Shown here piece by piece: positions 27,691 to 42,819 of a DNA stretch of 64,000 bases; the stretch's first letter is position 1, and every line of letters starts with the position of its first letter. The stretch covers positions 2,174,022-2,238,021 of the forward strand of contig OY282367.1 of NCBI GenBank assembly GCA_958295755.1, written 5' to 3'. This DNA comes from an uncultured Acidimicrobiales bacterium (lineage in GTDB: Bacteria; Actinomycetota; Acidimicrobiia; Acidimicrobiales; Hopanoidiivorantaceae). Made by a program: the position numbers and the translations under genes. A model generated the notes under the pieces. That model had not been told where the DNA came from, did not search any database, and saw only the letters and a list, made by a program, of their open reading frames with translations.

Positions 27691-28517
27691 GTTCTGAAGC
27701 TCCTGCCAGAGGAGTTGCTGCCAGAGGAGTTGCTGCCAGAGGAGTTGCTGATCGCGATAGAGGCTTCTGGGGCGACTTAGCAGCTGTAGCCAACAGGTCG
27801 CTACTGCAGCTGCCTCGTGATCTTGCCTCAATTATTCCGGCTCTCTTTGTGCCGGTTTTCTTCTATGTCGTAACCATCGGTGCTCTCAGCGGCATAGCCA
27901 ACTTCTCAGCTCTAGAGATCGACTACAAAGCCTTCCAGCTTCCCGTGGCGATCATCACCACCGTTACCGGTCTCTCACGGGCCGCAGCATTGGTGACCGA
28001 CATAAAAGACGGCTATTTCGACCGTCTCTTGCTCACGCCCGTGAACCGAGTCTCTCTGTTGCTGGGGCTGATGGTGGCAGATCTCACAGTGTTTTTGGCT
28101 CTATGCATTCCTGTGGTAGGGATGGGTCTTATCGTGGGTGTGAGCTTCCCTACTGGCGTTTTGGGTGTGCTGATCTTCATAGCTATGGGCACTCTTTGGG
28201 GGCTAATGTACACAGGCTTCCCCTACGCCATCGCATTGCGCACAGGCAATCCCACAGCAGTCAACAATTCGTTTTTGCTATTTTTTCCGTTCGTGTTCTT
28301 GACTACAGCTTGGCTTCCACAAGAAAACCTCTCAGGCTGGCTTTCTACCGTAGCAACTTGGAACCCAGTGAGCTACATACTTGAAGGCATGCGTTCGCTT
28401 TTCGTAGATTGGGATGGTGTAGCCATCGGTAAAGGTCTAGCCGCCATCTTAGGTGTGGGATTAGTAGCTCAGATTTTCGCTTTCATGGCTTTGCGAAGAC
28501 GAGTGCAAAACCCTTAA
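27687..28517 (+). CDS. ABC-2 type exporter permease (DrrB-like)
   Basis: The 276-residue protein has six hydrophobic segments from about residue 45. The ABC-2 permease signatures are AAALVTDIKDGYFDRLLLTPVNR near residue 95 and NPVSYILEGMRSLF near 235. With the preceding ATPase it forms a drug or lipid exporter in the cytoplasmic membrane. The N-terminus before the first helix carries a 5-residue repeat ARGVA, three times, from a 15-bp DNA repeat. It reads as a recent slippage expansion. Confidence 0.92.
   Translation: MSSEAPARGVAARGVAARGVADRDRGFWGDLAAVANRSLLQLPRDLASIIPALFVPVFFYVVTIGALSGIANFSALEIDYKAFQLPVAIITTVTGLSRAAALVTDIKDGYFDRLLLTPVNRVSLLLGLMVADLTVFLALCIPVVGMGLIVGVSFPTGVLGVLIFIAMGTLWGLMYTGFPYAIALRTGNPTAVNNSFLLFFPFVFLTTAWLPQENLSGWLSTVATWNPVSYILEGMRSLFVDWDGVAIGKGLAAILGVGLVAQIFAFMALRRRVQNP
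27705..27749 (+). repeat. 15-bp tandem repeat gccagaggagttgct, three copies
   Basis: Identical units at 27705, 27720 and 27735 near the 5' end of the permease gene, in frame. Confidence 0.95.
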
Positions 28518-28523
28518 AGATGT

Positions 28524-31500
28524 TTATTTGATTGCTTGATAGCAGTCTTTGATGCAGTTGTCCCAGCCGAAGATGTTTATTAGCAGGGTGCCTATGTGGG
28601 CTCTGTTCGCACCTTTATAGCAGTAAATTTCGCCGTTTTGTTGGCAGAATGCTACTTGGATGTCGCTTTGGGTGATTTGGTCCGCGGTGCTGTTGCGGAC
28701 GGGTTCCATACCGGCCATTGAACATATCATGTCTTGGCGGTCTAGGGCTGGTGCGGTATTTCTGGGTAGCTCTGTGATAGTTATGGACACTTGGGCGTTT
28801 AGAGTGTGGCCGCCGGCGGAGCGATAAGGCACGGTGAAGGTAGCTGTGCCTGTGTCTGCGCCGACGGTGATTTGATAGCTGCAGCCTGTGTTGGTAGCGC
28901 GGGTGATTTTGGTGTCTCGGTTAGTAGCTTGGCCGCAGGTGATGGTGTAGCTACCGTCTGTGACGTAGCTGGCAGCGTTTATGGTTATGGTGCTGCTAGC
29001 TGTCATAGATAGCCCTGTGGGTGGGGTATAGACAATAGTGGACGCAGCACCGATTTCTATATTGATAACGCCATCTAAGGTGGCACCGCCTATGGAGCGG
29101 TATGGCACTGTGAAAGTGGCTGTGCCATGGGTGCCTGTGGGAACAATATTGAAACCGCAAGAATCACTGTTGGGGCGTGTAATGGTGATTTTGGTATCCA
29201 CACTTGTAGCGTTGCTGCATTCAATGGGATAGTCGCCGTCTGTGGCATAGCTAGCTGCATTTATGGTAAGTGTGCGGTTAGTCCCCAGCTTCAAACCAGT
29301 GGGGCTAGTAAAAGAAATAGTAGAAGCCGGGCCGATCTCAACAGTGAAAACGCCGTTCAGTGTGGTGCCGCCGCTGGAGCTATAAGGCACAGTAAAGCTA
29401 GCTTCACCTTGTGTGCCTGTAGGTGTGATAGTGAATTTGCAAGGCTCACTGCTGGGATTAGCCCGCATAACAGTGATCTTAGAATCCACACCAGTAGCGT
29501 CGCCACAAGAAATGCTATAGTTCCCGTCAGACGCATAACCTAAAGCATCAATCACAAGAGTCCGATTAGTACCCAACTCAAAATCAGAAAAAGGCTCGCG
29601 AAAATAAAGAACAGAAGGCGGAGAATAGATATTAACCGAGATAGTAATATCTAGGGCCTGACCGCCGGTGGAAATGTAAGGCACAGTAAAGCTAGCAGTG
29701 CCAGTAAATGAGCCAGCAGTAACCATAAAAGAACAACCAGACCTGCGAACCGTAATCTTAGCATCTACATCGGTAGCATCCCCACACGAGACAATATTAC
29801 TACCAGCAGGAGTAAAAGCAGTAGTATCTAGAATGATGCTTCTGCCCGTCAACACAGACGGATTCAGACTACGTGTTCCGTGACGGAATGGGATAAAATT
29901 AGGACCGACTGTGATAGATACAACACCATCATATGTGTCGCCGCCTGTGGAGGTGTAGGGGATGGTGAAGGAAGATGTTCCTTCTGTGCCTGTGGGTGAG
30001 ATGGTGTAGTTACACCCTGAGCGTTGGATAGTGATTTTGCTTCCGACATTTTTGGCATCTGAACAAGAAATGGTGTAGGCACTGTTTTCAGTTACATAGT
30101 CCAATGCGTTGATGGTTAGACTCCGGTTTTTGCTCACTTGGAGGCCAGAGGGGGTAGCGAATGAGATATTGGAGGCTGGGCCTATGGTGATAGTGACGGT
30201 GCCATCTTCTGTGTCGCCGCCTGTGGAGGTGTAGGGGATGGTGAAGGAAGATGTTCCTTCTGTGCCTGTGGGTGAGATGGTGTAGTTACACCCTGAGCGT
30301 TGGATAGTGATTTTACTTCCGACATTTTTGGCATCTGAACAAGAAATGGTGTAGGCACTGTTTTCAGTTGCATAGTCCAATGCGTTGATGGTTCGGTTAC
30401 GGTTTTTGCCCACTTGTAGGCCAGTGGGGGCTGTGAATGAGATATTGGAGTCTGGGCCTATCGTGATAGTGACGGTGCCATTTTCTGTGTCGCCGCCTGT
30501 GGAGGTATAGGGCACAGTGAAGGTAGCTGTGCCAGTCTGTGAACCAGGTGTGATTGTGTAAGTGCAACCATCGCGAGTGATAGTAGAGATTAAGGCGTGT
30601 GTGTTTGTGGCATCAAGACAAGAAACCGTGTAGCCCTGGCTTTCGGTGATGTAGGAGTGAGCATCAATGTCAATGCTTCTGTTGGTTGCCACCAAAAGCC
30701 GTTTAGGTGCTGTGAATGTGATCTCTGATATTGCACCGAGATCTACAAAAATAATTCCTAGGTGTGTATCGCCTCCTGTCGACATATAAGGTACCGCAAT
30801 GGCAGTTGTTCCCTGAATCCGATGTAGAAGTGTATAAGAGCACCCATTTTGAGATATTTGCAACAAGTGGCGGTAAACATTAAACACGCGGACAACTTCA
30901 CCACATGAGATTGAGTAGCTACCATCTGCGACATAGGAGGAAGCATCAATTATGATGTTTCTGTTTATCGCAATTGAGAGAACCTCTGGAGGTGTGAAAA
31001 CGATATTTGAAGCCACCCCTATTGAGATAGCAATGATGCCGTTGTGTGTATTCCCGCCTGATGAGGTGTAGGGCACGGTGAATGTGGCTGTGCCAGTGGT
31101 GGTGCCTGCTGTGACTGTAAACAAGCAGCTATGAGGTGATCTGGAAATGGAAGATATTCTGGTGTGTTGATTTGTGGCATCCCCACAAGTAATGGTATAG
31201 CTACCATCGGAGGCATAAGTAGAAGCATTGATGACGGTGGATTGTCCAGCGGCAACAGTTGGGTTTGGGCTGGGAGCTGTAAATCTGATATTTGATACCC
31301 CAGAGGTTGAAGTAATAGCAACAGAAACCTCACCGTTGTGGGTGTCGCCACCTGCGGAGGTGTAGGGCACGGTAAATGTGGCGGCAGCGGCGACCGTGCT
31401 ACCTGCGGTGATTGTGTAGGAGCAGCCACTGCGGGTGATAGAAGAGATGCTTGCATGCTTGCCAGTAGCATTGCGACATGAGATTGCGTAGATGCCGTCT

Positions 31501-32972
31501 TTCACATAGCGACTAGCGTCAATGGTGATGCTTTTGCCTGAATTTATGACCAGGCCAGTGGGATTCGTATAGACGATATTGGAAGTTGCTTGACAACCAA
31601 TGGGATCATATTGCCTTGTGCCTAGACGTATGCCAGTGCGTAAATCTGTTGGCACACCGCCACTAATGGAATTATCACAGATGAGAAAAGCACTTAGTAC
31701 CCCACTTCCAGAAGAAGCGAGCCTGTTGAGTTGAGTGGGAATATTACCGGAAAGTTGATTATTGTTGAGCCGTAGGTTTCTAAGTTGTATGAGCTGATCG
31801 AATTCTGTGGGTATGTTGCCTGTGAGTAAGTTATAGGAAAGGTCAATGGTAGCGATTTTTGTGAGATTTCCCAGTTCAGATGGAATATTACCAGAAAGAA
31901 TGTTATGAGAAAGATTCAAGCCTTTAGTTGAGCTTCCAGCCAAGTTGGTGAGGCTACCAAGTTCTGTGGGTATGTTGCCTGCCAAACCATTATAAGAGAG
32001 GTCGAGTGTGGTGAGGTTGGTGAGTTGTCCGATTTGTGTGGGTATGTTGCCCGTGAGTCGATTTCTGGTGAGGTCGAGTGTGGTGAGGTTGGTGAGTTGT
32101 CCGATTTGTGTGGGTATGTTGCCGCCAAGTCTGTTGTTACTGAGGAAGAGGTTTGTTAGGTTTGTGAGGTTACCGATTTGGGTGGGTATGTTGCCACTAA
32201 GGTTATTGCCGGCGAGGGTGAGTGTGGTGAGGTTTGTGAGGTTACCGATTTGGGTGGGTATGTTGCCACTAAGGTTATTGCCGGCGAGGGTGAGTGTGGT
32301 GAGGTTTGTGAGGTTACCGATTTGGGTGGGTATGTCGCCAGTGAGTCCCCTTGCGAAATTGAATAAATCACTGTCCAATTCAAGTATTGTCAAGTTAGAT
32401 AAATTCCATATCTCTTTGGGTATGTTGCCTGATAAATTATGGCTATTGAATCGAAGTGAAGTAAGTGCTGTGAGGTTGCCTAACTCTGCTGGAATACTGC
32501 CTTCGACTCTGCTGTAGGAAAGATATATTGAATCAACACGGTTGTTTTTAAGAGAGACGTTTTGCCATGTATTTATTTTTTTATTCGTGCCTGTTCCCCA
32601 AGTTTTGAGAAATTTATCAGAGGCCAAACTACCGTTACTTTGCACTGCTGCCCAGTGATTTTGGACAGCTACTAGAGCTTGGCAATCTTCTACTAGATCG
32701 TTATTGGTGCCTACTACTCTTGGGTTGGCTGTGAGGTCTACGAAACTACCGTCAGTACAACCTGTGGAAGACAAAGCAACAACTGGGGTTGTTAAACTTT
32801 GAGAGGAAGCTAGGGAAGCAGAGACTGGGGAAGCTCGAGTAGGTGTGAGGGAGGTGCCTGCAACTGCTAGAGCTAAGGAGGTAACGAAGATTAATTTATA
32901 CAAAATTCTAAACGGGGGGGGGGGTGGCTGTTTTAGACATTTCATCGCGGGCTGAGGCATCACTTTGTGCAT
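28524..32972 (-). CDS. Giant secreted LRR protein 1, with poly-C tract in the signal region
   Basis: About 1482 residues from the ATG at 32972, which has AGGCG about 8 nt upstream. An upstream extension of 17 residues has no counterpart in the second LRR protein. Order of parts: a basic start, five prolines (16-20) encoded by an 11-nt C tract, a hydrophobic signal core (~23-39), and an N-cap with CTDGSFVDLTANPRV and DCQALVAVQNHW. About ten plant-type 24-residue LRRs follow (consensus NLTNLTTLxLxxNxLSGNIPTQIG) and a C-cap ending GCQ. Then come ten ~92-residue beta repeats, each with two Cys (ISC...GC) and a closing FTVPYTSxGG, and an ~80-residue C-terminal domain with six Cys. No LPXTG or C-terminal helix is seen. 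Likely exported; adhesion or recognition is inferred. Confidence 0.88.
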   Translation of the reverse strand: MHKVMPQPAMKCLKQPPPPPFRILYKLIFVTSLALAVAGTSLTPTRASPVSASLASSQSLTTPVVALSSTGCTDGSFVDLTANPRVVGTNNDLVEDCQALVAVQNHWAAVQSNGSLASDKFLKTWGTGTNKKINTWQNVSLKNNRVDSIYLSYSRVEGSIPAELGNLTALTSLRFNSHNLSGNIPKEIWNLSNLTILELDSDLFNFARGLTGDIPTQIGNLTNLTTLTLAGNNLSGNIPTQIGNLTNLTTLTLAGNNLSGNIPTQIGNLTNLTNLFLSNNRLGGNIPTQIGQLTNLTTLDLTRNRLTGNIPTQIGQLTNLTTLDLSYNGLAGNIPTELGSLTNLAGSSTKGLNLSHNILSGNIPSELGNLTKIATIDLSYNLLTGNIPTEFDQLIQLRNLRLNNNQLSGNIPTQLNRLASSGSGVLSAFLICDNSISGGVPTDLRTGIRLGTRQYDPIGCQATSNIVYTNPTGLVINSGKSITIDASRYVKDGIYAISCRNATGKHASISSITRSGCSYTITAGSTVAAAATFTVPYTSAGGDTHNGEVSVAITSTSGVSNIRFTAPSPNPTVAAGQSTVINASTYASDGSYTITCGDATNQHTRISSISRSPHSCLFTVTAGTTTGTATFTVPYTSSGGNTHNGIIAISIGVASNIVFTPPEVLSIAINRNIIIDASSYVADGSYSISCGEVVRVFNVYRHLLQISQNGCSYTLLHRIQGTTAIAVPYMSTGGDTHLGIIFVDLGAISEITFTAPKRLLVATNRSIDIDAHSYITESQGYTVSCLDATNTHALISTITRDGCTYTITPGSQTGTATFTVPYTSTGGDTENGTVTITIGPDSNISFTAPTGLQVGKNRNRTINALDYATENSAYTISCSDAKNVGSKITIQRSGCNYTISPTGTEGTSSFTIPYTSTGGDTEDGTVTITIGPASNISFATPSGLQVSKNRSLTINALDYVTENSAYTISCSDAKNVGSKITIQRSGCNYTISPTGTEGTSSFTIPYTSTGGDTYDGVVSITVGPNFIPFRHGTRSLNPSVLTGRSIILDTTAFTPAGSNIVSCGDATDVDAKITVRRSGCSFMVTAGSFTGTASFTVPYISTGGQALDITISVNIYSPPSVLYFREPFSDFELGTNRTLVIDALGYASDGNYSISCGDATGVDSKITVMRANPSSEPCKFTITPTGTQGEASFTVPYSSSGGTTLNGVFTVEIGPASTISFTSPTGLKLGTNRTLTINAASYATDGDYPIECSNATSVDTKITITRPNSDSCGFNIVPTGTHGTATFTVPYRSIGGATLDGVINIEIGAASTIVYTPPTGLSMTASSTITINAASYVTDGSYTITCGQATNRDTKITRATNTGCSYQITVGADTGTATFTVPYRSAGGHTLNAQVSITITELPRNTAPALDRQDMICSMAGMEPVRNSTADQITQSDIQVAFCQQNGEIYCYKGANRAHIGTLLINIFGWDNCIKDCYQAIK
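29945..30496 (-). repeat. 276-bp tandem repeat (92 codons) in LRR protein 1
   Basis: Two adjacent beta-repeat modules are nearly identical in DNA as well as protein. For example, ctgtggaggtgtaggggatg recurs at 29945 and 30221, exactly 276 bp apart. A third copy begins near 30497 but is diverged. This indicates recent module duplication or gene conversion. Confidence 0.85.
32161..32335 (-). repeat. 72-bp identical LRR-coding repeats
   Basis: Copies at 32161-32232 and 32233-32304 appear identical, with a partial third from 32305. Each encodes one 24-residue LRR. Confidence 0.9.
32914..32924 (-). repeat. Homopolymer tract: 11 C on the coding strand of LRR protein 1
   Basis: Eleven consecutive G on the plus strand, coding for Pro between the start codon and the signal core. 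Loss of one base gives TAA at the eighth codon after the tract, and gain of one gives TAG at the second. Confidence 0.95.
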
Positions 32973-33009
32973 GTATGATCGCCTCGCAAAACTGGAGTGG
33001 TGAAAGTGG

Positions 33010-33030
33010 GACTGCCTTCTCAAAGCAGTC
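33010..33030 (-). other. Hairpin in the LRR protein 1 leader
   Basis: GACTGC (33010-33015) and GCAGTC (33025-33030) form a 6-bp stem with a 9-nt loop in the ~88-nt leader. On the transcript the loop contains a GAGAAGG-like purine run. It may affect translation or be chance. Confidence 0.35.
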
Positions 33031-33065
33031 TTCTTAGTATGGCTTATCTAACTGGTAACCCATAA

Positions 33066-33094
33066 AGTATATCAAGCTTGCGCGACTTTAGCAA
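33066..33094 (-). promoter_or_regulatory. Promoter of LRR protein 1 (TTGCTA-17-TATACT)
   Basis: On the minus strand, TTGCTA (33094-33089) and TATACT (33071-33066) are spaced by 17 nt. Transcription should start near 33059, giving a leader of about 88 nt. The second LRR gene also has a TATACT -10 box. Confidence 0.55.
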
Positions 33095-33199
33095 CCCCTT
33101 TAAGTAGCGAAACCTTTTTGTATTGGTTTTCCGCGACAAAGCAGATCATTTATCAGCTTTGGCGGTGTTTTCTTTAGGCTGTGTTTATCAATCTGCGTT

Positions 33200-33235
33200 T
33201 TCTTTAGTCTGCTGCTGGTTCTTTAGTCTGCCGCT
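33200..33235. repeat. 19-nt-period repeat across the DoxX gene stop
   Basis: ttctttagtctgctgct and ttctttagtctgccgct lie 19 nt apart. The second copy contains the stop codon of the DoxX gene and the first lies just beyond it. Confidence 0.75.
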
Positions 33236-33765
33236 AGCGTTTCACCGTTTGTGGCTGTTTCTTTGGGCGGGTGGTAGAAAATGCTTAGCAACAGAGCGGC
33301 AGCCGAGATGCCGCCTCCGCCAGCTACTATCAGGCCAATCCAGCCGTCGATGCTCTCATTGATACCAATGGCGTAGTCAAGCGATATATCGCCGGGGCCG
33401 ATCATGGCGATGATCACGGCGAAGACTGCAATGATGAAGGTGTATTCCCAGCCTTCCTTGATGATAAAGAAGCCGTTGTGCCGATGCACCACCCAAGCTG
33501 CCACAGCCATAAGCCCCACAATTCCCAAGGCTGCGATGCTCGTAGCCAAGCCAAATGCCAAGAACAGACCTGATCCCATCTCGCCTGCTGCTGCGAAAAT
33601 GGCGTGCATTTTCCCGGGGCGCATACCGATGCTGGAAAACCAGCCAGCTGTGCCTTCTATCTTGCCACCCTTAAAAAACTTGTTGTAGCCGTGGGCAAAG
33701 ATAGTGAGACCTAGGGCTACTCTGGCGATGAGAAGGGCAATGTCTATTTCAGTGCTGAAATCCAT
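33223..33765 (-). CDS. DoxX family membrane protein
   Basis: The 180-residue protein has four hydrophobic helices. The first region LLIARVALGLTIFAHGYNKFFKGGKIEGTAGWF and the following IGMRPGKMHAIFAAAGEMGSGLFLAFGL are the DoxX core. The AHGYNK and GxxE motifs are characteristic. In mycobacteria DoxX joins a membrane oxidoreductase complex with SodA and SseA; elsewhere the role is unclear. AAAGG lies about 9 nt before the ATG. It sits between the two giant LRR genes on the same strand, with no evident functional link. Confidence 0.88.
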   Translation of the reverse strand: MDFSTEIDIALLIARVALGLTIFAHGYNKFFKGGKIEGTAGWFSSIGMRPGKMHAIFAAAGEMGSGLFLAFGLATSIAALGIVGLMAVAAWVVHRHNGFFIIKEGWEYTFIIAVFAVIIAMIGPGDISLDYAIGINESIDGWIGLIVAGGGGISAAALLLSIFYHPPKETATNGETLAAD

Positions 33766-33889
33766 GTTGTGTACCTTTCTAGGGGGGCTGTTGTCTGAGA
33801 GGGGCTGTGTGAACTAGGGCTGGTCGGCAGGGCTGTCTTACAGTCAGATGCTAGTCGGATTAAAGTTTAGTTAGCATAAAGAGAGGCAA

Positions 33890-34144
33890 ATGGGCACATT
33901 TTTGAACATTCTGCTGGCTGTGATAGCTGGGTTGCTGATTGTGGTAGGAGGCATCTGGGTTTTGAGGTTATTATCGCAAACTCCACCCGAACCGCCGCCA
34001 GCAGGCGAGCTGAGGAAAGTGAAGCTCATGTATCGTTGCGACATCTGCGGGACTGAGATGCGGATGACAGTCTCACCCACCGAAGACCCCCCGCCGCCGC
34101 TTCACTGCCAAGACGAAATGTCGCTAATGGCACCTATCGAATAG
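33890..34144 (+). CDS. Small membrane protein with zinc-ribbon-like end
   Basis: This 84-residue protein has one N-terminal helix (about 6-28), a Pro-rich linker, and a C-terminal MYRCDICGTEMRMTV...PPPPLHCQDEM. The CxxC pair near residue 50 and a HC pair near 74 could bind zinc. Short conserved proteins with this CDICG/PPPP-H-C pattern occur in actinobacteria without assigned function. The ribosome site GAGAGG lies 3 nt before the ATG. It is the only plus-strand gene inside the LRR region. Confidence 0.8.
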   Translation: MGTFLNILLAVIAGLLIVVGGIWVLRLLSQTPPEPPPAGELRKVKLMYRCDICGTEMRMTVSPTEDPPPPLHCQDEMSLMAPIE

Positions 34145-34159
34145 CAAAACTCAGAGGAA

Positions 34160-34211
34160 CTAGAAGTTCTTGCTAGATGTTCTGGCTAGAAGTCCTGGCT
34201 AGAAGTTCTAC
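34160..34211. repeat. 13-bp repeat ctagaagttctgg-type, four copies
   Basis: Diverged units start at 34160, 34173, 34186 and 34199, just after the stop of the zinc-ribbon gene and before the 3' end of LRR gene 2. Confidence 0.85.
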
Positions 34212-34231
34212 GGACGCACGCTATTTTTTAT

Positions 34232-37200
34232 CTAGCTGATTGCTTGGTAGCAGTCTTTGATGCTGTTGTCCCAGCCTCGGATGTTTATTAGCAGGGTGTC
34301 TATGAAGGCTCTGTTGGCACCTCTAAAACAGTGAAGTTCGCCGTTTTGCTGGCAGAACGCTGCTTGGTTGTCGCCTTGGGTGATTTCATCGGCGGTGCTA
34401 CTACGGACGGGTTCCATACCTACCATTGAACAGATCGTGTCTTGGCGGTCTAGGATTGGTGCGGTATTTCTAGGCAGCTCGGTGATGGTGATAGATATTT
34501 GACCATCTAGGGTATGGCCTCCTGCGGAGGTGTAGGGCACAGTGAAGGTAGCGGTGCCTGTATCTGCGCCGACGCTGATTTGATAGCTGCAGCCTGTATT
34601 GGTAGCGCGGGTGATTTTGGTGTCCCGATTGGTGGCTTGGCCGCAGGTGATGGTGTAACTACCGTCTGTGACAGCTGCGGCTGCGTCTATGGTTAAGGTG
34701 CTGCTAGCGGTCATAGTCAGCTCTGTGGGTGCTGTATAGACAATAGTTGACGCAGCACCGATTGCTATGTTGATGGTGCCGTCTTGGGTGGCACCGCCGC
34801 TGGAAGTATAAGGCACAGTAAAGCTAGCAGCACCTTGTGCTCCAGTAGCTGTGATAGTAAATTCGCAAGACGCAATGCTCGGATTCGCCTGAGTAACAGA
34901 AATCTTAGAATCCACCCCTGTAGCGGTGCCGCAGGTTATGACATAGCCGCCATCTGTGACATAGCTAGCAGCATCTATGATGCGTGTGCGGTTAGTTCCC
35001 AGCATCAAGCCACTGGGCGCGCTATAGGCAATAGTAGAAGCCGGGCCGACCTCAATAGTGAAAACACCGTTGCGGCTGGTACCGCCGCTGGAGGTATAAG
35101 GCACAGTGAAGCTAGCTTCACCTTGGGTGCCTGAAGGAGTAACAGTAAATTCGCAAGGCTCACCACTCGGATTAGCCCTTTGGATAGTGATAATAGAAGT
35201 AGACACACCGGTAGCATCGCCGCAAGAAACGCTATAGCCCCCATCAGACGCATAATCCAAAGCGTCAATCACAAGAGTCTGATTAGTACCCAACTCCAAA
35301 TCAAAAGACCCACGGAAGAAAATATGAGAAGGCGGACGATAGACAATAACTGAGAAAGTAGCGTCAAGAGTGTCGCCGCCGCTGGAGCGATAAGGCACAA
35401 TGAAGGTTGCAGCACCCGAAGTGCTGCTCGCAGTCACCGTGTATCTGCAAGTGTTGCCGATGCGAACAACCGAAGCTATCTGATCACTTTCTTCTCTGGC
35501 AACGCCACATGAAATCGTGTAGCTACCATCGCTTGCATATTGGGAAGCATCGAATGTGATGGATCTGTTTATATCCACAGCCAAGGTGCCGGGGTCGGTG
35601 AATGTGATGTCGGAATTGGGGCGTAGTCCTATAGAGATCGCCCCGTTGTGGGTGTCGCCGCCAGATGAGGTATAAGGCACGACGAATGAGGCAATGCCTG
35701 GGTTATCACCTGGTGTGATAGTGAAGACGCAACCGTCTCGTGTTACCGAGGATAACCTGCTGTGAATTCTGGTGGCGTCAGCACACATGATTATGTGGTT
35801 GCCATCAGATGCGTAGGTTGAAGCGTCTATTCTCAAATTTTGGCTACCGGTGATTGTGAGACCAGAGGGTGCCGAGAACACGATCTCAGATGTGTCGGAC
35901 GGCGGACCGACGGTAACTCGAATTGTTCCGTTCGCTGTGGTGCCACCTGCTGAAGAGAACAGCACAGCGAAAGTTGCTGAGCCTTGAATCGTTCCAGCTT
36001 TGATATTGAATTGGCATCCGTTTCGTGTTACGGAAATCCCGTTGCTCACTGAAGTGGGATTACTACAGGTAACTGTGTAGCCGCCATCTGATGCGTAGTT
36101 CAGAGCATTGACGATAATTTGACGCCCCGCAGGCACTGAAAGGTCAGATGGAGCATTGAATCTCAGGCTGGAAGCTATCTGGCAGCCGATTGGGTCATAT
36201 GTGGTTGTTTCCCAAGAGGGTATCGCTGTGTGCAGGGCTGTTGGCACGGCTCCTGTGAAGTAGTTGCGGCAGATAGTTAATTGAGTAAGGCTACCTGTGG
36301 GAGTGGCTAGAGTGGCGAGTTCGGTGGGTATAGTGCCTGTGAGCCGGTTGTCACTGAGGCCGAGCTGTGTGAGTTTGGTGAGTTGGCTGAGTTGGGTGGG
36401 TATGTTTCCTGTGAGGCGGTTGTAGCTGAGGTCGAGTTCTGTGAGGTTTGTGAGGTTGCCTATTTGTGTGGGTATGTTGCCTGTGAGCCGGTTGAGGCCG
36501 AGGTCTAGGTTTGTGAGGTTTGTGAGGTTGCCTATTTGTGTGGGTATGTTGCCTGTGAGCCGGTTGAAGCCGAGGTCTAGGTTTGTGAGGTTTGTGAGGT
36601 TGCCTATTTCGGTGGGTATGTTGCCTGTGAGGCGGTTGCTACTGAGGTTGAGGGTTGTGAGCCCTGTGAGGTTGCCTATTTCGGTGGGTATGTTGCCTGT
36701 GAGGCGGTTGTTACTGAGGTTGAGGGTTGTGAGCCCTGTGAGGTTGCCTATTTCGGTGGGTATAGTGCCTGTGAGTTGGTTGTCGTGGAGGTAGAGGTTG
36801 GTGAGGTTGATGAGGTTGCCTATTTCGGTGGGTATGGCACCTGTGAGCCGGTTGTCACTGAGGCCGAGCTGTGTGAGGTTTGTGAGGTTGCCTATTTCGG
36901 TGGGTATGGCACCTGTGAGGAGGTTGGTACCGAGGTTGAGGTTTGTGAGCTCTGTGAGGTTGCCTAGTTGTGTGGGGATAGTGCCTGCAATTCCTGGGCT
37001 AATGCCACCAAATGGCCTAGAAAGATTGAGTGAAGTAACACGTTTGTTGGTGATGGTTATATTTGACCAGGTGTTTATTTTTTGGGTTGTGCCTGTTCCC
37101 CATGTGCGCAGGGGGTGAGTGGCTGAAAGGATGTTGTTTTCGGTTACTGCGGCCCAGTGGTTTTGGATGGCTACTAGAGCTTGGCAGTCTTCTGCTAGAT

Positions 37201-40200
37201 CATTATTTGACCCCTCAACTCTGGGGTTGGTTACGAGATCGACGAAAGTGCCATCGGTGCAACCAGATGCTGGAAGAGTAGTAATGGCTGTGCCAGACGG
37301 TGATTCTTCCCACTGACAGCCGACTGGGTCATAAGTGGTTGTTTGCCAAGAGGGTATCGCTGTGCGTAGGGCTGTTGGCACGGCTCCTGTGAAGTAGTTG
37401 CGGCAGATAAATAACCAAGTAAGGCTACCTGTGGGAGTGGCTAGAGCGGCGAGTTCGGTGGGTATGTTGCCTGTGAGGCGGTTATTGTCGAGGTTGAGGG
37501 TTGTGAGTTTTGTGAGGTTGCCTAGTTGTGAGGGTATGTTGCCTGTGAGGCGGTTGCCCGAGAGATTCAGTCCCGAAATGAAGGTGTTACCTGTGAGTTT
37601 GGTGAGGTTACCTATTTGTGTGGGTATGTTGCCTGTGAGGCGGTTGTAGCCGAGGCTTAGGTTTGTGAGAGCTGTCAAACTGCCTAGTTGTGTGGGTATG
37701 TTGCCTGTGAGGCGGTTGCCACTGAGGTTGAGGGTTGTGAGCCCTGTGAGGTTGCCTATTTCGGTGGGTATAGCACCTGTGAGCCGGTTGAGCCTGAGGT
37801 CTAGGTCGGTGAGGTTTGTGAGGTTGCCTATTTCGGTGGGTATAGCACCTGTGAGGCTGTTGCTATCGAGCCGGAGCTGTGTGAGTTTAGTGAGTTGGCT
37901 GAGTTGTGTGGGTATGTTGCCTGTGAGTCGGTTACTCCTGAGGTTGAGGTTTATAAGCCCTGTGAGGTTGCCTATTTCGGTGGGGATAGTGCCTGCAATT
38001 CCTGGGCTAGTGGCACTAAATGGCCTAGAAAGGTTGAGTGAAGTAACACGTTTGTTGGTGATGGTTATATTTGCCCAGGTGTTTATTTTTTGGGTTGTGC
38101 CTGTGCCCCATGTGCGGAGGGGATGAGTGGCCGAAAGGTTGTTGTTGTCGGTTACTGCGGCCCAGTGGTTTTGGATGGCTACTAGGGCTTGGCAGTCTTC
38201 TGCTAGATCGTTATTTGCGCCAGTTACTCTGGGATTTGCGGTGAGATCTACAAAGGTGCCGTCGGTGCAGCCGGTTGCTGAGAGTGCCGAGATTGGATCT
38301 GGGGCAGGTGTTGTCGGTGCATTGACTGTAATGGATATAACGCCGTTATGGGTGTCGCCTCCAGAGGAGGTGTAGGGCACGGTGAATGTGGCAGTGCCGC
38401 TTGTATTGCCTGAAGTAATGTTGTAGAGGCATCCGCTAGATCGGGTAACTGTGATTTTGGAATCTACTAAAGTTGCATCGGCGCATGAAATTGTGTAGTC
38501 ATCATCTGTTACATAAGCCAAAGCATCTATAGCCAAACCACCTTGCGAAAGGCTACTAACACCAGTGTTTATCGCAAGGCCAGTTGGTGCGGTGAATGTG
38601 ATGTTTGAAATATTTATGACAATTATTCCGTTTTCAGAGTCGCCGCCGGTGCTTCTGTAGGGCACTGTAAAGCTCGCGATGCCTTTTGCGTTTGATTGAG
38701 CAGCAATAACATAAGAGCAACCTGTGCGAGAAGTGATGCTGATTTTAGATGAGACACTTGTGGCATCAGCACAAGAAATGGTGCTAGTGCCATCTGTAGC
38801 ATAAGACGAAGCATCTATCGTTTTGCTTGCTCCTGCTACCATCGAAAAAGCAACGGGGCTTGAAAATACTATGTTAGAAGTTGCTGAGGATGGGGTGATA
38901 GTTAGGGTAACAATGACGCTTTGCGTTGCACCACCTGCACTGGTATATGGCACGGTGAAGTTGGCAAAACCAGCGGTGGAGCCTGCCGTTACGGTGTATC
39001 TGCAACCTTCGCGCGAAATGGAAGAGATTTGCGAGGAAACGTTAGTGGCATCAGCACAACTAATGGAATAACCACCGTCTGTCACAAAAAGTCTTGTGTT
39101 AATGGTAACTCGGCGACTGGCTGGCACAGATACACCGCTAGATACTACGGGTAAAGATCGCGATGGATGAAGGGAAGTGGGAGGAATCAGGTTAATCGAT
39201 GAGTTTCTTTGGCAGCCAATTGAAGTGCTAGGTTGGCTGGTTGGATATCCAACGAGTATTTGAGTTAGGAAATTGGCTTGGGGTAGCGATCCTGAAAGAT
39301 AGTTTCCGCAGATCAACAAACTTCTGAGGTTGCCCCGTCCGCTGGTAGATATGGGAGTTGTCGCTGGAGCAAGATTAGCTAGTTGAGCAGGAATTTCCCC
39401 CGAGAGTTGGTTGTGTGAGAGGTCTAGCCACATCAGGCTAGTGAGTTTGCCCAAAGTTGTGGGTATCTCACCAGATATTGAATTGCCACCGGTGGATTCG
39501 CTGTCGTTGCCTAGATCGAGGCGAAGGAGTTTGGTGAGGTTCCCTAATTCAGCGGGTATGTTGCCTGTGAGCTGGTTGTTTGAGAGGTCTAACCATGTGA
39601 GGTTGGTGAGGCTACCTAGTTGCGTAGGGATAGCACCTGTGAATTGGTTGCGAGAAAAATTAAGGGATGTGAGGCTTGTCAAACTGCCGAGCTCAGAGGG
39701 GATACTGCCAGAAAGACTATTTCTGCCGAGGCTTAAGTTTGTGAGAGCTGTCAAACTGCCAAGCTCAGAGGGGATACTTCCCGATAGCCGGTTGTTATAG
39801 AGGCTTAGGTTTGTGAGAGCTGTCAAACTGCCTAGTTGTGTGGGTATGTTGCCTGTTAGCCGGTTTCCTGACAAGTTAAGCGAGGTGAGACTGGTGAGAT
39901 TGCCTAGCTGGACGGGTATAGACCCTGATATTCCGGGATTAGATCCTGCGGGGTTGAATAAACTGAAAATAGAGATTCGGTTATTGTTGATTGTGATATT
40001 GGCCCAATTTTCAATACCGGGATTTGTTGTGTCTGTGCCCCAAGTGCGAAGAGGATGTTCGGTTGGCAAGCTGTTGTTGGCGGTCACTGCTGCCCAGTGA
40101 TTTTGAATAGCTACTAGAGCCTGGCAGTCTTCTACAAGATCGTTGTTTGCTCCCGCAACTCTGGGGTTGGCTGTGAGGTCTACGAAAGTGCCGTCGGTGC

Positions 40201-42790
40201 AGCCTGTAGCAGACAGGGCAGTGATAGCCGTGCTTGCGGCCGGGTTAGCATATTGGCATTGGACTGAGCTATATCCCGCATTTGTTGGATAACTCAGCAG
40301 GAGAACTCCAGATTGCAATCCAACTGGCACTGCTCCAGTCAGGTAGTTGTTGCAAATTGCCAGCCTGCTGAGGCGGGTGAGGCTTCCGAGTTGGGTGGGT
40401 ATGTTGCCTGTGAGCTGGTTATTGTTGAGCCAGAGGTTGGAGAGGTTGGTGAGGTTGCCGAGTTGGGTGGGTATGTTGCCTGTGAGTTGGTTGTTGGAGA
40501 GGTTGAGGTTGGAGAGGTTTGTGAGGTTGCCTAGTTGTATTGGAATAGATCCGCTGATGTCCTGATCCGTAAGCCCTATAGAGCCTACGCGATCAAAGCT
40601 GGAGGTGCCAGAACTGAAGATGCCAGACCAATTGAATATCTTCTGCGAAGCTCCCACTCCCCAAGTTCTAAGGGGATGGTTGGCTGGAAGATTATTATTT
40701 GCGGCAACTCCAGCCCAATGGTTTTGAATAGCGACTAGAGCTTGGCAGTCTTCTGCTAGATCGTTATTGGCACCTGTGACTCTGGGGTTGGCTGTGAGAT
40801 CCACAAAGGTACCGTCGGTGCAGCCTGTGGCAGAAAGGGCGGTGATAGCACCTAGTGGTGTGGTGGTTGAGCTGATGGTGATTGTGATTGTGCCGTTGTG
40901 GGTGTCGCCTCCTGCGGAGGTGTAGGGCACAATCAAAGTAGTGGTTCCTGTGGTTGAACCAGCAGTGAGGGTATATGTGCATCCGTCGCGTCTGATGGAT
41001 GTGATCTTCGAATCTCCTAATCTGGGATTTCCGCATGTGATGGTATATGAACCGTCAGTGGCATATGTTGAAGCGTCAATGGTGAGGTTGCGCTCTGCCT
41101 CCATAGTGAGATTTGTGGGGGCTGTGAAGACGATGTTGGAGGCTACGCCGATGGTGATGGTGATTGTGCCGTTGTGGGTGTCGCCGCCTGCGGAGGTATA
41201 GGGCACAGTGAAGGAAGCGGTGCCTGTTTGGGTGCCTGCGGTGACGGTGTAGAGGCAACCGATGCGAGCAATGGAGGAGATTTTGGCGTGTTTGTTGGTG
41301 GCGTCTTCACACGAGATGGTATAAAAGTCGTTGTCGGATGCATATTGAGAAGCATCAACAATAATGCTTCTGCTGACAGACACTGTGGGATTAGTAGGCG
41401 GGGCAGTGAAGACGATATTGGAAATCGGGTTCTGGCAGGCGATGGGGTCATAGCCGTCTGCGCTGGGATAGTCCCGTAAGTTAACACCCGTACGAAGGCT
41501 TGAGGGCAGTGCTCCGGTAAGTTGGTTACGGCAGATGCCAAGGTGGGCAAGAGTTGTGATTGCCCCTAGCTGGGTCGGAACAGAACCTGTAAGACGGTTA
41601 TCGTTGAGCCAGAGGTTGATGAGGCGGGTGAGGTTGCCAATCTCTGTGGGTATGTTGCCTGTGAGCTGGTTATTCGAGAGATCCAGTCCCGGACTGTAGG
41701 TGTCACCTGCGAGGTTGGTGAGGTTGCCTATTTCAGTGGGTATGTTGCCTGTGAGCTGGTTGCTAGCGAGGTAGAGGTATGTGAGGTTGGTGAGGTTGCC
41801 TATCTGTGTGGGTATAGCACCTGTGAGGCGGTTATCGTGGAGGAAGAGCTGTGTGAGGTTGGTGAGGTTGCCTATCTGTGTGGGTATAGCACCTGTGAGC
41901 TGGTTGACACCGAGGTGGAGGTTTGTGAGGTCTGTGAGGTTGCCTATTTCGGTGGGTATGTTGCCTGTGAGTCGGTTGCTACTTAGCCAGAGGGTTGTGA
42001 GGTCTGTGAGGTTGCCTATTTCGGTGGGTATGTTGCCTGTGAGCTGGTTGTTACCGAGGTAGAGCTGTGTGAGGTTGGTGAGGTTGCCTATCTCGGTGGG
42101 GATAGTGCCTGTGAGGCGGTTGCTACTGAGCCAGAGGTTTGTGAGGTTTGTGAGGTTGCCGACTTGTGTGGGTATGTTGCCTGTGAGGCGGTTGCCATAG
42201 AGGATGAGGCTGGTGAGGTTGGTGAGTTGTCTGATTTGGGTGGGGATGTTGCCTGTGAGTCGGTTATCGTGGAGGTAGAGCTGTGTGAGGTTTGTGAGGT
42301 TGCCAATCTCGGTGGGGATAGTGCCTGCAATTCCTGGGTTAAAGCCAATAGATGGCCTAAAAAGTCTAAGTGAAGTAACACGTTTACTGGTGATAGTTAT
42401 ATTTGCCCAGGTGTTTATTTTTTGGGTTGTGCCTGTTCCCCATGTGCGCAGGGGGTGAGTGGCTGAAAGGATGTTGTTGTCGGTTACTGCGGCCCAGTGG
42501 TTTTGGATGGCTACTAGGGCTTGGCAGTCTTCTACGAGGTCGTTGTTGGCACCTGTGACTCTGGGGTTGGCTGTGAGGTCTACAAAGGTTCCGTCGGTGC
42601 AGCCTGTTGCGGAGAGTGCAGTGACGGGGGTTGTTTGGAATTGAGAGGAGGCTGGGGAGGCAAAAGTGGTTGTGAGAGTGGTGACTGCGACTGTAAGAGC
42701 GAGAAAGGCAAAAAAGATTTTTTTAGCTAGTGCATAAGACGGGAGGGGGGGGGTTGGCTGACTTAGATTTTTGTATCGCGGTTTGTGCAT
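34232..42790 (-). CDS. Giant secreted LRR protein 2, five LRR cassettes, poly-C tract
   Basis: About 2852 residues from the ATG at 42790. AAGGTG lies 6 nt upstream, so the GTG nine bases earlier is not chosen. A basic start, a Pro/Thr stretch (12-17) on a 9-nt C tract, and a hydrophobic core (~23-39) come first. The N-cap CTDGTFVDLTANPRV...DCQALVAIQNHW...LRTWG occurs five times, each starting an LRR cassette of roughly 3 to 12 plant-type repeats (LTGNIPTEIGNLTNL), about 40 LRRs in all. Eleven ~92-residue two-Cys beta repeats are placed after cassettes 1, 3 and 5. The last four and the final ~80-residue domain closely match LRR protein 1. No sorting signal or C-terminal helix is seen. Likely exported; the role in surface recognition is inferred. 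Confidence 0.9.
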   Translation of the reverse strand: MHKPRYKNLSQPTPPLPSYALAKKIFFAFLALTVAVTTLTTTFASPASSQFQTTPVTALSATGCTDGTFVDLTANPRVTGANNDLVEDCQALVAIQNHWAAVTDNNILSATHPLRTWGTGTTQKINTWANITITSKRVTSLRLFRPSIGFNPGIAGTIPTEIGNLTNLTQLYLHDNRLTGNIPTQIRQLTNLTSLILYGNRLTGNIPTQVGNLTNLTNLWLSSNRLTGTIPTEIGNLTNLTQLYLGNNQLTGNIPTEIGNLTDLTTLWLSSNRLTGNIPTEIGNLTDLTNLHLGVNQLTGAIPTQIGNLTNLTQLFLHDNRLTGAIPTQIGNLTNLTYLYLASNQLTGNIPTEIGNLTNLAGDTYSPGLDLSNNQLTGNIPTEIGNLTRLINLWLNDNRLTGSVPTQLGAITTLAHLGICRNQLTGALPSSLRTGVNLRDYPSADGYDPIACQNPISNIVFTAPPTNPTVSVSRSIIVDASQYASDNDFYTISCEDATNKHAKISSIARIGCLYTVTAGTQTGTASFTVPYTSAGGDTHNGTITITIGVASNIVFTAPTNLTMEAERNLTIDASTYATDGSYTITCGNPRLGDSKITSIRRDGCTYTLTAGSTTGTTTLIVPYTSAGGDTHNGTITITISSTTTPLGAITALSATGCTDGTFVDLTANPRVTGANNDLAEDCQALVAIQNHWAGVAANNNLPANHPLRTWGVGASQKIFNWSGIFSSGTSSFDRVGSIGLTDQDISGSIPIQLGNLTNLSNLNLSNNQLTGNIPTQLGNLTNLSNLWLNNNQLTGNIPTQLGSLTRLSRLAICNNYLTGAVPVGLQSGVLLLSYPTNAGYSSVQCQYANPAASTAITALSATGCTDGTFVDLTANPRVAGANNDLVEDCQALVAIQNHWAAVTANNSLPTEHPLRTWGTDTTNPGIENWANITINNNRISIFSLFNPAGSNPGISGSIPVQLGNLTSLTSLNLSGNRLTGNIPTQLGSLTALTNLSLYNNRLSGSIPSELGSLTALTNLSLGRNSLSGSIPSELGSLTSLTSLNFSRNQFTGAIPTQLGSLTNLTWLDLSNNQLTGNIPAELGNLTKLLRLDLGNDSESTGGNSISGEIPTTLGKLTSLMWLDLSHNQLSGEIPAQLANLAPATTPISTSGRGNLRSLLICGNYLSGSLPQANFLTQILVGYPTSQPSTSIGCQRNSSINLIPPTSLHPSRSLPVVSSGVSVPASRRVTINTRLFVTDGGYSISCADATNVSSQISSISREGCRYTVTAGSTAGFANFTVPYTSAGGATQSVIVTLTITPSSATSNIVFSSPVAFSMVAGASKTIDASSYATDGTSTISCADATSVSSKISITSRTGCSYVIAAQSNAKGIASFTVPYRSTGGDSENGIIVINISNITFTAPTGLAINTGVSSLSQGGLAIDALAYVTDDDYTISCADATLVDSKITVTRSSGCLYNITSGNTSGTATFTVPYTSSGGDTHNGVISITVNAPTTPAPDPISALSATGCTDGTFVDLTANPRVTGANNDLAEDCQALVAIQNHWAAVTDNNNLSATHPLRTWGTGTTQKINTWANITITNKRVTSLNLSRPFSATSPGIAGTIPTEIGNLTGLINLNLRSNRLTGNIPTQLSQLTKLTQLRLDSNSLTGAIPTEIGNLTNLTDLDLRLNRLTGAIPTEIGNLTGLTTLNLSGNRLTGNIPTQLGSLTALTNLSLGYNRLTGNIPTQIGNLTKLTGNTFISGLNLSGNRLTGNIPSQLGNLTKLTTLNLDNNRLTGNIPTELAALATPTGSLTWLFICRNYFTGAVPTALRTAIPSWQTTTYDPVGCQWEESPSGTAITTLPASGCTDGTFVDLVTNPRVEGSNNDLAEDCQALVAIQNHWAAVTENNILSATHPLRTWGTGTTQKINTWSNITITNKRVTSLNLSRPFGGISPGIAGTIPTQLGNLTELTNLNLGTNLLTGAIPTEIGNLTNLTQLGLSDNRLTGAIPTEIGNLINLTNLYLHDNQLTGTIPTEIGNLTGLTTLNLSNNRLTGNIPTEIGNLTGLTTLNLSSNRLTGNIPTEIGNLTNLTNLDLGFNRLTGNIPTQIGNLTNLTNLDLGLNRLTGNIPTQIGNLTNLTELDLSYNRLTGNIPTQLSQLTKLTQLGLSDNRLTGTIPTELATLATPTGSLTQLTICRNYFTGAVPTALHTAIPSWETTTYDPIGCQIASSLRFNAPSDLSVPAGRQIIVNALNYASDGGYTVTCSNPTSVSNGISVTRNGCQFNIKAGTIQGSATFAVLFSSAGGTTANGTIRVTVGPPSDTSEIVFSAPSGLTITGSQNLRIDASTYASDGNHIIMCADATRIHSRLSSVTRDGCVFTITPGDNPGIASFVVPYTSSGGDTHNGAISIGLRPNSDITFTDPGTLAVDINRSITFDASQYASDGSYTISCGVAREESDQIASVVRIGNTCRYTVTASSTSGAATFIVPYRSSGGDTLDATFSVIVYRPPSHIFFRGSFDLELGTNQTLVIDALDYASDGGYSVSCGDATGVSTSIITIQRANPSGEPCEFTVTPSGTQGEASFTVPYTSSGGTSRNGVFTIEVGPASTIAYSAPSGLMLGTNRTRIIDAASYVTDGGYVITCGTATGVDSKISVTQANPSIASCEFTITATGAQGAASFTVPYTSSGGATQDGTINIAIGAASTIVYTAPTELTMTASSTLTIDAAAAVTDGSYTITCGQATNRDTKITRATNTGCSYQISVGADTGTATFTVPYTSAGGHTLDGQISITITELPRNTAPILDRQDTICSMVGMEPVRSSTADEITQGDNQAAFCQQNGELHCFRGANRAFIDTLLINIRGWDNSIKDCYQAIS
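42745..42753 (-). repeat. Homopolymer tract: 9 C on the coding strand of LRR protein 2
   Basis: Nine consecutive G on the plus strand (with GGGA before them), at the same relative site as the tract in LRR gene 1. Loss of one base gives TAG, and gain of one gives TAA, within about eight codons. Confidence 0.95.
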
Positions 42791-42819
42791 TGGCGTCACC
42801 TTACAGTAGTTTCATAGTT

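What the first reader, a model, noticed from the sequence alone, without database searches (positions are those of the whole stretch)
28524..42790. Paired modular LRR-beta-repeat proteins built like decks of cassettes
Seen: gene 2 repeats a full N-cap plus LRR block five times and intersperses eleven ~92-aa beta repeats. Gene 1 has one cap-LRR block and ten beta repeats. The last four beta repeats and the end domain match between them. The N-cap (DCQALVAIQNHW...LRTWG...RVTSL) parallels the plant LRRNT pattern, and the LRRs carry the plant-type GxIPxxLGxL consensus. Inference: domain shuffling between paralogues produces diverse binding surfaces.
Basis: partly seen in the sequence, partly recalled or inferred. 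Interest (0 to 1): 0.7.

Follow-up and report, generated by a model that had tools for sequence, protein, structure and literature searches.

The report
Switchable giant modular LRR surface proteins
The two genes encode secreted, probably adhesive proteins built from repeated plant-receptor-like cassettes and Ig-like beta repeats; they belong to a 25-gene family that fills about 11% of the genome, includes a 20,107-residue frame, and carries poly-G/C tracts at its gene starts that look like on/off switches.

Summary
Gene 2 has five N-cap/LRR cassettes and 11 beta repeats. Gene 1 has one cassette and 10 beta repeats. Both end in the same 4-Cys domain. Only the last three beta repeats (plus a sliver of the fourth) match, not four.

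The pair is a small part of something larger. The 2.29-Mb genome holds about 25 family genes (83,357 aa, 10.9% of the genome), with frames up to 20,107 and 14,266 aa and 574 copies of a beta repeat. I found that repeat in no other genome searched.

In the same-genus and same-family genomes both window sites are empty. The same-genus genome has only short single-cassette relatives.

AlphaFold models match plant LRR receptor ectodomains (Z about 40) and tandem Ig-like/cadherin-like stalks.

All 19 G/C runs of 9 nt or more in 464 kb of fetched DNA lie at the 5' ends of family genes, including both window genes (C11 and C9, in frame). Several giants are out of frame. Other tracts in the genome sit in restriction-modification and prepilin-like genes.

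Best reading: phase-variable, modular, secreted adhesin-like proteins. The anatomy is firm. Switching and binding are inferred.

The parts
28524..32972 (-). Gene 1 coding sequence from the likely ATG (longest ORF to 33023): signal peptide, 1 LRR cassette, 10 beta repeats, end domain
32914..32924 (-). C11 homopolymer in codons 34-37 of the ORF, between the ATG and the signal-peptide core; in frame here; the other two frames after it stop within a few codons
32838..32906 (-). Hydrophobic core of a Sec-type signal peptide (gene 1)
   Evidence: hydropathy maximum near aa 40; inspection
32526..32774 (-). Gene 1 N-cap
   Evidence: HMM 119.5 bits
31596..32495 (-). Gene 1 LRR array (11 units) with C-cap
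28773..31586 (-). Gene 1 ten beta (Ig-like) repeats, two Cys each
28524..28763 (-). Gene 1 end domain (about 78 aa, Cys-rich)
33223..33765 (-). doxX-like gene between the two LRR genes; the conserved syntenic marker used for the empty-site test
34232..42790 (-). Gene 2 coding sequence from the likely ATG (longest ORF to 42799): 5 cassettes, 11 beta repeats, end domain
42745..42753 (-). C9 homopolymer between the ATG and the signal-peptide core; in frame here
42650..42727 (-). Hydrophobic core of a Sec-type signal peptide (gene 2)
   Evidence: inspection
41429..42616 (-). Gene 2 cassette 1 (N-cap, 11 LRRs, C-cap)
40871..41425 (-). Gene 2 beta repeats 1-2
40226..40837 (-). Gene 2 cassette 2 (N-cap, 3 LRRs)
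39185..40216 (-). Gene 2 cassette 3 (N-cap, 8 LRRs)
38321..39151 (-). Gene 2 beta repeats 3-5
37286..38284 (-). Gene 2 cassette 4 (N-cap, 8 LRRs)
36185..37276 (-). Gene 2 cassette 5 (N-cap, 10 LRRs)
34481..36175 (-). Gene 2 beta repeats 6-11
   Evidence: modelled
34232..34471 (-). Gene 2 end domain (about 78 aa, Cys-rich)

Best explanation
The two genes are small members of a lineage-specific, genome-wide family of exported modular proteins. Each LRR cassette (helical N-cap plus plant-class 24-aa LRRs) is a recognition module. Tandem disulphide-bonded Ig-like beta repeats act as rigid spacers that hold the cassettes away from the cell. A conserved C-terminal module (the 78-aa end domain here, a different domain in most other members) is the constant end. 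I infer that they work as surface or secreted adhesins or recognition proteins. Diversity arises in two ways. First, cassettes and repeat blocks are duplicated and exchanged within and between loci (shown by sequence). Second, expression is probably switched on and off by slippage of poly-G/C tracts at the 5' ends: the tracts and the in-frame/out-of-frame states are shown, the switching itself is inferred. In this assembly both window genes read as ON.
For: Family size and architecture: about 25 genes, 83,357 aa, 10.9% of the genome, frames up to 20,107 aa. N-terminal hydrophobic segments of signal-peptide type in most members, with no clear C-terminal membrane anchor or LPXTG. Two Cys conserved in 574 of 575 beta repeats. 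Beta-repeat model pLDDT about 90+, matching tandem stalk domains of adhesins and surface proteins: SraP Z 8.6-9.3, Intimin Z 9.8, SbsC Z 8.5, cadherin-23 Z about 8. Cassette model Z 40.7 to the MIK2 ectodomain (2.3 A over 344 residues, 40% identity) and Z 40.2 to FLS2. LRR diversity is highest at exposed strand positions. Cassette exchange. Insertion into an otherwise syntenic locus. Tracts: 19 of 19 G/C runs of 9 nt or more in 464 kb lie within -210 to +340 nt of a family gene start. Runs of 9-11 nt (19) outnumber runs of 7-8 nt (9), the reverse of chance decay, and there are no A/T runs of 9 nt or more. Signal peptide or upstream ATG and body lie in different frames across the tract in the 20,107-, 5,959- and 5,706-aa genes and in g415931. 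The separately assembled same-genus genome has G9/G10 tracts in the signal-peptide region of its single-cassette relatives, one of them splitting the frame. Genome-wide, tracts also fall in Type ISP, Type I HsdS, Type III Mod, Dcm-like and DUF1156 methylase genes and in prepilin-like genes, the usual company of phase-variable loci.
Against: No ligand, localisation, expression or tract-length variation data exist here. The end domain was modelled with low confidence. pN/pS does not exceed 1 at any LRR position. A single consensus sequence cannot show switching, and homopolymer lengths are error-prone in assemblies. About 40 tracts lie outside the family, some in housekeeping genes (ribonucleotide reductase; just upstream of PEPCK), so a tract alone does not prove switching. 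Eight family genes have no tract.
Confidence: 0.7

Rival explanations
1. A structural coat or fibre: the giants form a passive surface layer or extended fibres (as proposed for giant proteins of Omnitrophota) and the LRR cassettes have no diversified ligand role.
For: Beta-repeat dominance in the largest gene (185 beta repeats, 4 cassettes); S-layer proteins among the fold matches; giant proteins proposed as coats in PMC10066038.
Against: Many members are cassette-rich (18 caps in the 14,266-aa gene); LRR variability is concentrated at exposed strand positions; tract-controlled expression is unusual for a constitutive coat.
Confidence: 0.17
2. The poly-G/C tracts are mutational or replication by-products (or assembly noise) and do not switch anything; the genes are simply expressed or decayed.
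For: Every one of at least 60 tracts has G on the strand expected from one switch point near 0.93 Mb and another between 1.72 and 1.97 Mb, a replication-strand pattern (GC skew). Some tracts lie in or near housekeeping genes. A species-wide study of P. acnes found tract lengths that followed clades, suggesting slow change (PMC4746626).
Against: In the family-selected 464 kb, 19 of 19 tracts fall at family 5' ends. Restriction-modification and prepilin-like genes are over-represented elsewhere. The tract in the same position class recurs in another species of the genus.
Confidence: 0.15
3. Non-adaptive repeat expansion: unequal recombination inflated repeats in one lineage; many copies are dispensable or decaying.
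For: Restricted to one species among 99 relatives and 396 phylum genomes; several giants are out of frame at the 5' end.
Against: Frames of 14-20 thousand codons without a stop; both Cys kept in 574 of 575 repeats; pN/pS well below 1 at scaffold positions.
Confidence: 0.08
4. Released effector-like or host-mimicking LRR proteins that act on a eukaryotic partner rather than adhesins held on the cell.
For: Strong likeness to plant receptor ectodomains; no membrane anchor or LPXTG; NCBIfam's best matches are LRR effector models, far below their cut-offs.
Against: Size, Ig-like stalks and repeated cassettes suit tethered or extracellular display; no injection-type signal was seen; the NCBIfam matches reflect the LRR class only.
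Confidence: 0.1

Closest known systems
Plant-class LRR ectodomains (MIK2, FLS2, GSO1, PGIP)
   Same: 24-aa LxxLxLxxNxLxGxIPxxLGxLxx repeats; helical N-cap that superposes; Z about 40
   Different: No LRRNT_2 match, no receptor kinase, cassettes repeated within one bacterial exported chain
Listeria-type internalins
   Same: Exported cap-LRR-Ig-like organisation
   Different: Different LRR class (24 aa plant type against SDS22-like 21-23 aa), no LPXTG, many cassettes per chain, no homologous cap detected
Giant tandem-repeat adhesins (MpAFP, about 120 Ig-like repeats, 1.5 MDa; PMC4083281)
   Same: Long tandem beta-sandwich stalk presenting ligand modules
   Different: Repeats vary in sequence, carry conserved Cys pairs and show no RTX match; exported by an N-terminal signal peptide; LRR cassettes as heads
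Phase-variable G/C-tract surface genes (Neisseria and Helicobacter by general knowledge; Gardnerella PMC11287997; P. acnes PMC4746626)
   Same: G/C tracts near the start of surface-protein genes and, in Gardnerella, methyltransferase genes
   Different: Applied here to a giant multi-cassette LRR family, up to 20,107 aa, about 11% of a genome; switching not yet shown
Omnitrophota giant ORFs (PMC10066038)
   Same: Giant ORFs with suspected adhesion roles
   Different: Here the domains are recognisable and repeated, and the family has about 25 members with switch-like tracts

Membership tests
Plant-specific LRR class | Repeat of 23-25 aa with LxxLxLxxNxL(t/s)GxIPxxLGxLxx (consensus from PMC2946307) | tested here: met
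   298 exact 24-aa units fit; I/V-P, N and G positions almost invariant
Plant-specific LRR class | Solenoid fold of plant receptor ectodomains | tested here: met
   Z 40.7, 2.3 A, 344 residues to MIK2; many plant ectodomains above Z 30
LRRNT_2 (PF08263) plant N-cap | Match to the Pfam model | tested here: not met
   No match at E<=10 in the whole genome; the structural overlap of the cap supports 'works like', not membership
Internalins | SDS22-like LRRs of 21-23 aa | tested here: not met
   24-aa plant-type units
Internalins | LPXTG or equivalent wall anchor | tested here: not met
   No LPxTG in the last 120 aa and no C-terminal hydrophobic anchor in the window genes; the genome does hold one sortase
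RTX giant adhesins | RTX repeats and C-terminal type I secretion region | tested here: not met
   No RTX family among Pfam matches; an N-terminal signal peptide is present instead
RTX giant adhesins | Tandem beta-sandwich extender repeats | tested here: met
   Two tandem repeats modelled at pLDDT about 90 with Ig-like/cadherin-like matches
Phase-variable (contingency) locus | Long homopolymer at the 5' end whose length sets the reading frame | tested here: met
   C11 and C9 in the window genes; the other frames stop within codons
Phase-variable (contingency) locus | Tract length varies within a population and changes expression | not testable with these tools
   No reads or strains available; one genome per species is held
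Bacterial Ig-like (Big_*) Pfam families | Beta repeat scores above a curated cut-off | tested here: not met
   Best E-values 0.006-0.1 for the 13 repeats scanned; no Big_* match reaches significance

The most novel reading that the evidence does not exclude
A two-level surface-diversification system in an uncultured bacterium. About 17 family genes, including a 20,107-residue protein, are switched independently by poly-G/C tracts. Recombination reshuffles plant-receptor-like LRR cassettes among the loci, and the same kind of tract switches restriction-modification and pilin-like genes, so that one clone presents a large, changing set of recognition surfaces together with a changing defence state.
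Probability: 0.4. Interest if true: 0.86.

Novelty: new variant of a known kind. Interest (0 to 1): 0.73.

Why it matters
If true, a small-genome bacterium spends about a tenth of its DNA on a switchable, recombining repertoire of receptor-like proteins. It would bring phase variation, usually studied in pathogens, to giant proteins in an uncultured lineage. It also gives a directly testable system: reads from one sample would show whether tract lengths vary. The beta repeat (574 copies, found in no other genome searched) and the 78-aa end domain are apparently lineage-specific modules.

Tried and rejected
Searched for the end domain in 59 relatives and a scan of about 85,000 species genomes, and the beta repeat in 99 relatives, 396 genomes of the phylum, about 85,000 species genomes (pattern scan), viral contigs, phages and plasmids: none outside this genome. 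The GTDB-wide scans rest on one or two exact peptide patterns and would miss diverged relatives.

Pfam, NCBIfam and PHROGs name nothing beyond the LRRs. NCBIfam's effector matches lie far below their cut-offs and are dismissed as LRR-class similarity.

Positive selection at LRR surface positions was looked for and not found (pN/pS at most 0.9). Simple adjacent-unit tandem duplication was rejected as the main mode: only 15 of 574 beta repeats have their nearest relative next door. A regular super-repeat in the 116-copy array is weak, with slight peaks at lags 8, 10, 16 and 20.

LPXTG anchoring was rejected. A literature search found no description of this family. Within-species comparison was not possible because one genome per species is held.

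Full report
WHAT IS THERE. The window holds two minus-strand genes flanking a doxX-like gene: gene 1 (28524-33023, 1499 aa) and gene 2 (34232-42799, 2855 aa). HMMs built from their own repeats give, from the N terminus: gene 1 = signal peptide, N-cap, 11 LRR units, 10 beta repeats, end domain; gene 2 = signal peptide, N-cap + 11 LRR, 2 beta, N-cap + 3 LRR, N-cap + 8 LRR, 3 beta, N-cap + 8 LRR, N-cap + 10 LRR, 6 beta, end domain. The claim that the last four beta repeats match should be three: pairwise identities are 76, 61 and 87% for the last three and 41% for the fourth.

A GENOME-WIDE FAMILY. The window lies at 2,174,022-2,238,021 of a single 2,292,181-base contig. Searches with the cap and end domain, followed by fetching every hit region, show about 25 family genes totalling 83,357 aa, 10.9% of the genome. 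Longest frames: 20,107 aa (185 beta repeats, 4 cassettes), 14,266 aa (18 caps, 97 LRRs, 93 beta repeats), 8,806, 6,865, 5,959 and 5,706 aa. In all there are 574 beta repeats, about 430 LRRs and about 70 caps. Six genes end in the 78-aa end domain. Most others, including the six largest, end in a second conserved domain, which is also present in the same-genus genome.

DISTRIBUTION. The beta repeat was found in no other genome among 99 relatives, 396 genomes of the phylum, GTDB-wide and viral pattern scans, phages or plasmids; the end domain was found in none of 59 relatives or the GTDB-wide scan. The cap occurs in one other genome, of the same genus, in ORFs of about 650-790 aa with a single cassette. 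In that genome and in the same-family genome, the ABC ATPase, ABC permease and doxX genes are in the same order as in the window with no LRR gene between permease and doxX; in the same-genus genome the next gene (trpG-like) follows doxX after an intergenic gap of about 0.9 kb. The window genes were therefore gained at two sites either side of doxX, or lost twice, which is less simple. On an N-cap tree, caps of the beta-repeat genes group together next to single-cassette genes of both genomes. This fits amplification from a single-cassette ancestor, although long branches make the deep forks unsure. Both relatives are draft assemblies.

STRUCTURE. The cassette model (mean pLDDT 82, LRR part about 95) matches plant LRR receptor ectodomains: MIK2 Z 40.7 (2.3 A, 344 residues, 40% identity), FLS2 Z 40.2. 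The alignment includes the helical cap from model residue ~30. Pfam's LRRNT_2 does not match anywhere in the genome, so the cap is plant-like in shape but not a tested member of that family. Two tandem beta repeats modelled at pLDDT about 90 match single and tandem beta-sandwich domains of phage collars, Intimin, SraP, SbsC, contactins and cadherins. Several of these Z-scores (8-10) are in the range where only a common fold is implied. Both Cys of the repeat are kept in 574 of 575 copies, consistent with an intradomain disulphide in an exported protein. The end domain was not confidently modelled.

EVOLUTION. Among 298 exact 24-residue LRRs, diversity is greatest at positions 10, 13, 15, 17, 18 and 20, the exposed strand positions and their neighbours. 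Scaffold positions have pN/pS well below 0.5, and no position exceeds 1. For beta repeats the nearest relative lies in another gene for 303 copies, elsewhere in the same gene for 256, and adjacent for only 15. Long shared blocks join distant loci (6,962 nt at 89% between genes 1.4 Mb apart), and the best partner switches along genes. On the N-cap tree three giant genes are as mixed as shuffled labels, whereas gene 2's caps cluster. So exchange between loci is well supported for the family, and local amplification for gene 2.

POLY-G/C TRACTS. In the 464 kb fetched for the family and its neighbours there are 19 G/C runs of 9-11 nt. All 19 lie within -210 to +340 nt of the start of one of 17 family genes. 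There are more such runs than runs of 7-8 nt, and no A/T run reaches 9. In the window the only two such runs are C11 (32914-32924) in gene 1 and C9 (42745-42753) in gene 2, both between the ATG and the signal-peptide core. In both genes the two alternative frames after the tract stop within a few codons, so a one-base change would abolish the protein before its signal peptide. In this assembly both are in frame, as are four other family genes by inspection. In the 20,107-, 5,959- and 5,706-aa genes and one short gene, the upstream start or signal peptide and the body lie in different frames across the tract. The same-genus genome has G9 and G10 tracts in the signal-peptide region of its single-cassette genes, and in one the frame is split there. 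Homopolymer lengths are error-prone, so individual ON or OFF states are not safe; the placement of the tracts is.

THE WIDER SET. The genome has at least 60 runs of 9 nt or more (the list is truncated). Those outside the family fall in Type ISP restriction-modification enzymes (two paralogues), a Type I specificity subunit, a Type III methyltransferase (C14), a cytosine methylase (C14), an N6-methylase and a DUF1156 methylase; in a cluster of prepilin-like proteins; in an exported RCC1-repeat protein; and in or near some genes with no obvious reason. Where these tracts sit relative to the 5' ends was not analysed gene by gene; several lie well inside the gene. All listed tracts have G on one strand from 1.97 Mb through zero to about 0.93 Mb and on the other strand from about 0.93 to 1.72 Mb, with a short interleaved zone at 0.928-0.934 Mb. 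GC skew broadly agrees. Replication direction thus seems to set the strand, whatever the gene orientation.

INTERPRETATION. The best-supported reading is a family of exported, modular, adhesin-like recognition proteins: LRR heads, Ig-like stalks, a constant C-terminal module, diversified by recombination and probably phase-variable. Shown: architecture, export signal, family size, exchange of blocks, tract placement and frames, empty sites in relatives. Inferred: surface or secreted location, binding, switching. Precedents for G/C-tract surface genes and methylases exist in Gardnerella and P. acnes (PMC11287997, PMC4746626), and giant ORFs with suspected adhesion roles exist in Omnitrophota (PMC10066038). 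I found no description of this combination. Gene content suggests an actinobacterium, but this was not tested.

Noticed in passing
G000:C1, whole contig: At least 60 G/C runs of 9 nt or more, with G on the strand set by two switch points (about 0.93 Mb and 1.72-1.97 Mb): a replication-strand asymmetry independent of gene orientation.
   Followed up: partly
L134, L136, L141, L142, L145, L150, L151: Poly-G/C tracts in restriction-modification and methylase genes (two Type ISP enzymes, HsdS, Type III Mod with C14, cytosine methylase with C14, N6-methylase with C12, DUF1156 methylase with G11).
   Followed up: partly
L137 (C1:927457-940533), L138, L147: Cluster of prepilin-like proteins (GITLQTLIVTAVLVLVAVGA...) with C/G tracts upstream of or near the hydrophobic segment; no Pfam match for those tested.
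   Followed up: partly
C1:782182-842505 (L048-L051): Open frame of 20,107 aa with 116 beta repeats in one run; its signal peptide lies in another frame across a G10 tract.
   Followed up: partly
C1:408697-413175 (L042): Two neighbouring short LRR genes are 99.7% identical over 2,075 nt, a very recent duplication.
   Followed up: no
L149 C1:1521355-1523589: Exported RCC1-repeat protein (744 aa) with a C9 tract in its signal-peptide region.
   Followed up: no
window 27703-27750: 15-bp repeat, 3.2 perfect copies, in the 5' coding end of the ABC permease gene (ARGVA repeats).
   Followed up: no
window 34160-34209: 13-bp near-palindromic repeat (CTAGAAGTTCTGG-like), 3.8 copies, between the gene 2 stop and doxX.
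   Followed up: no
L126:2269-2282: C14 tract upstream of doxX in the same-family genome, near the start of a different exported-looking ORF, at the side where gene 2 sits in this genome.
   Followed up: no
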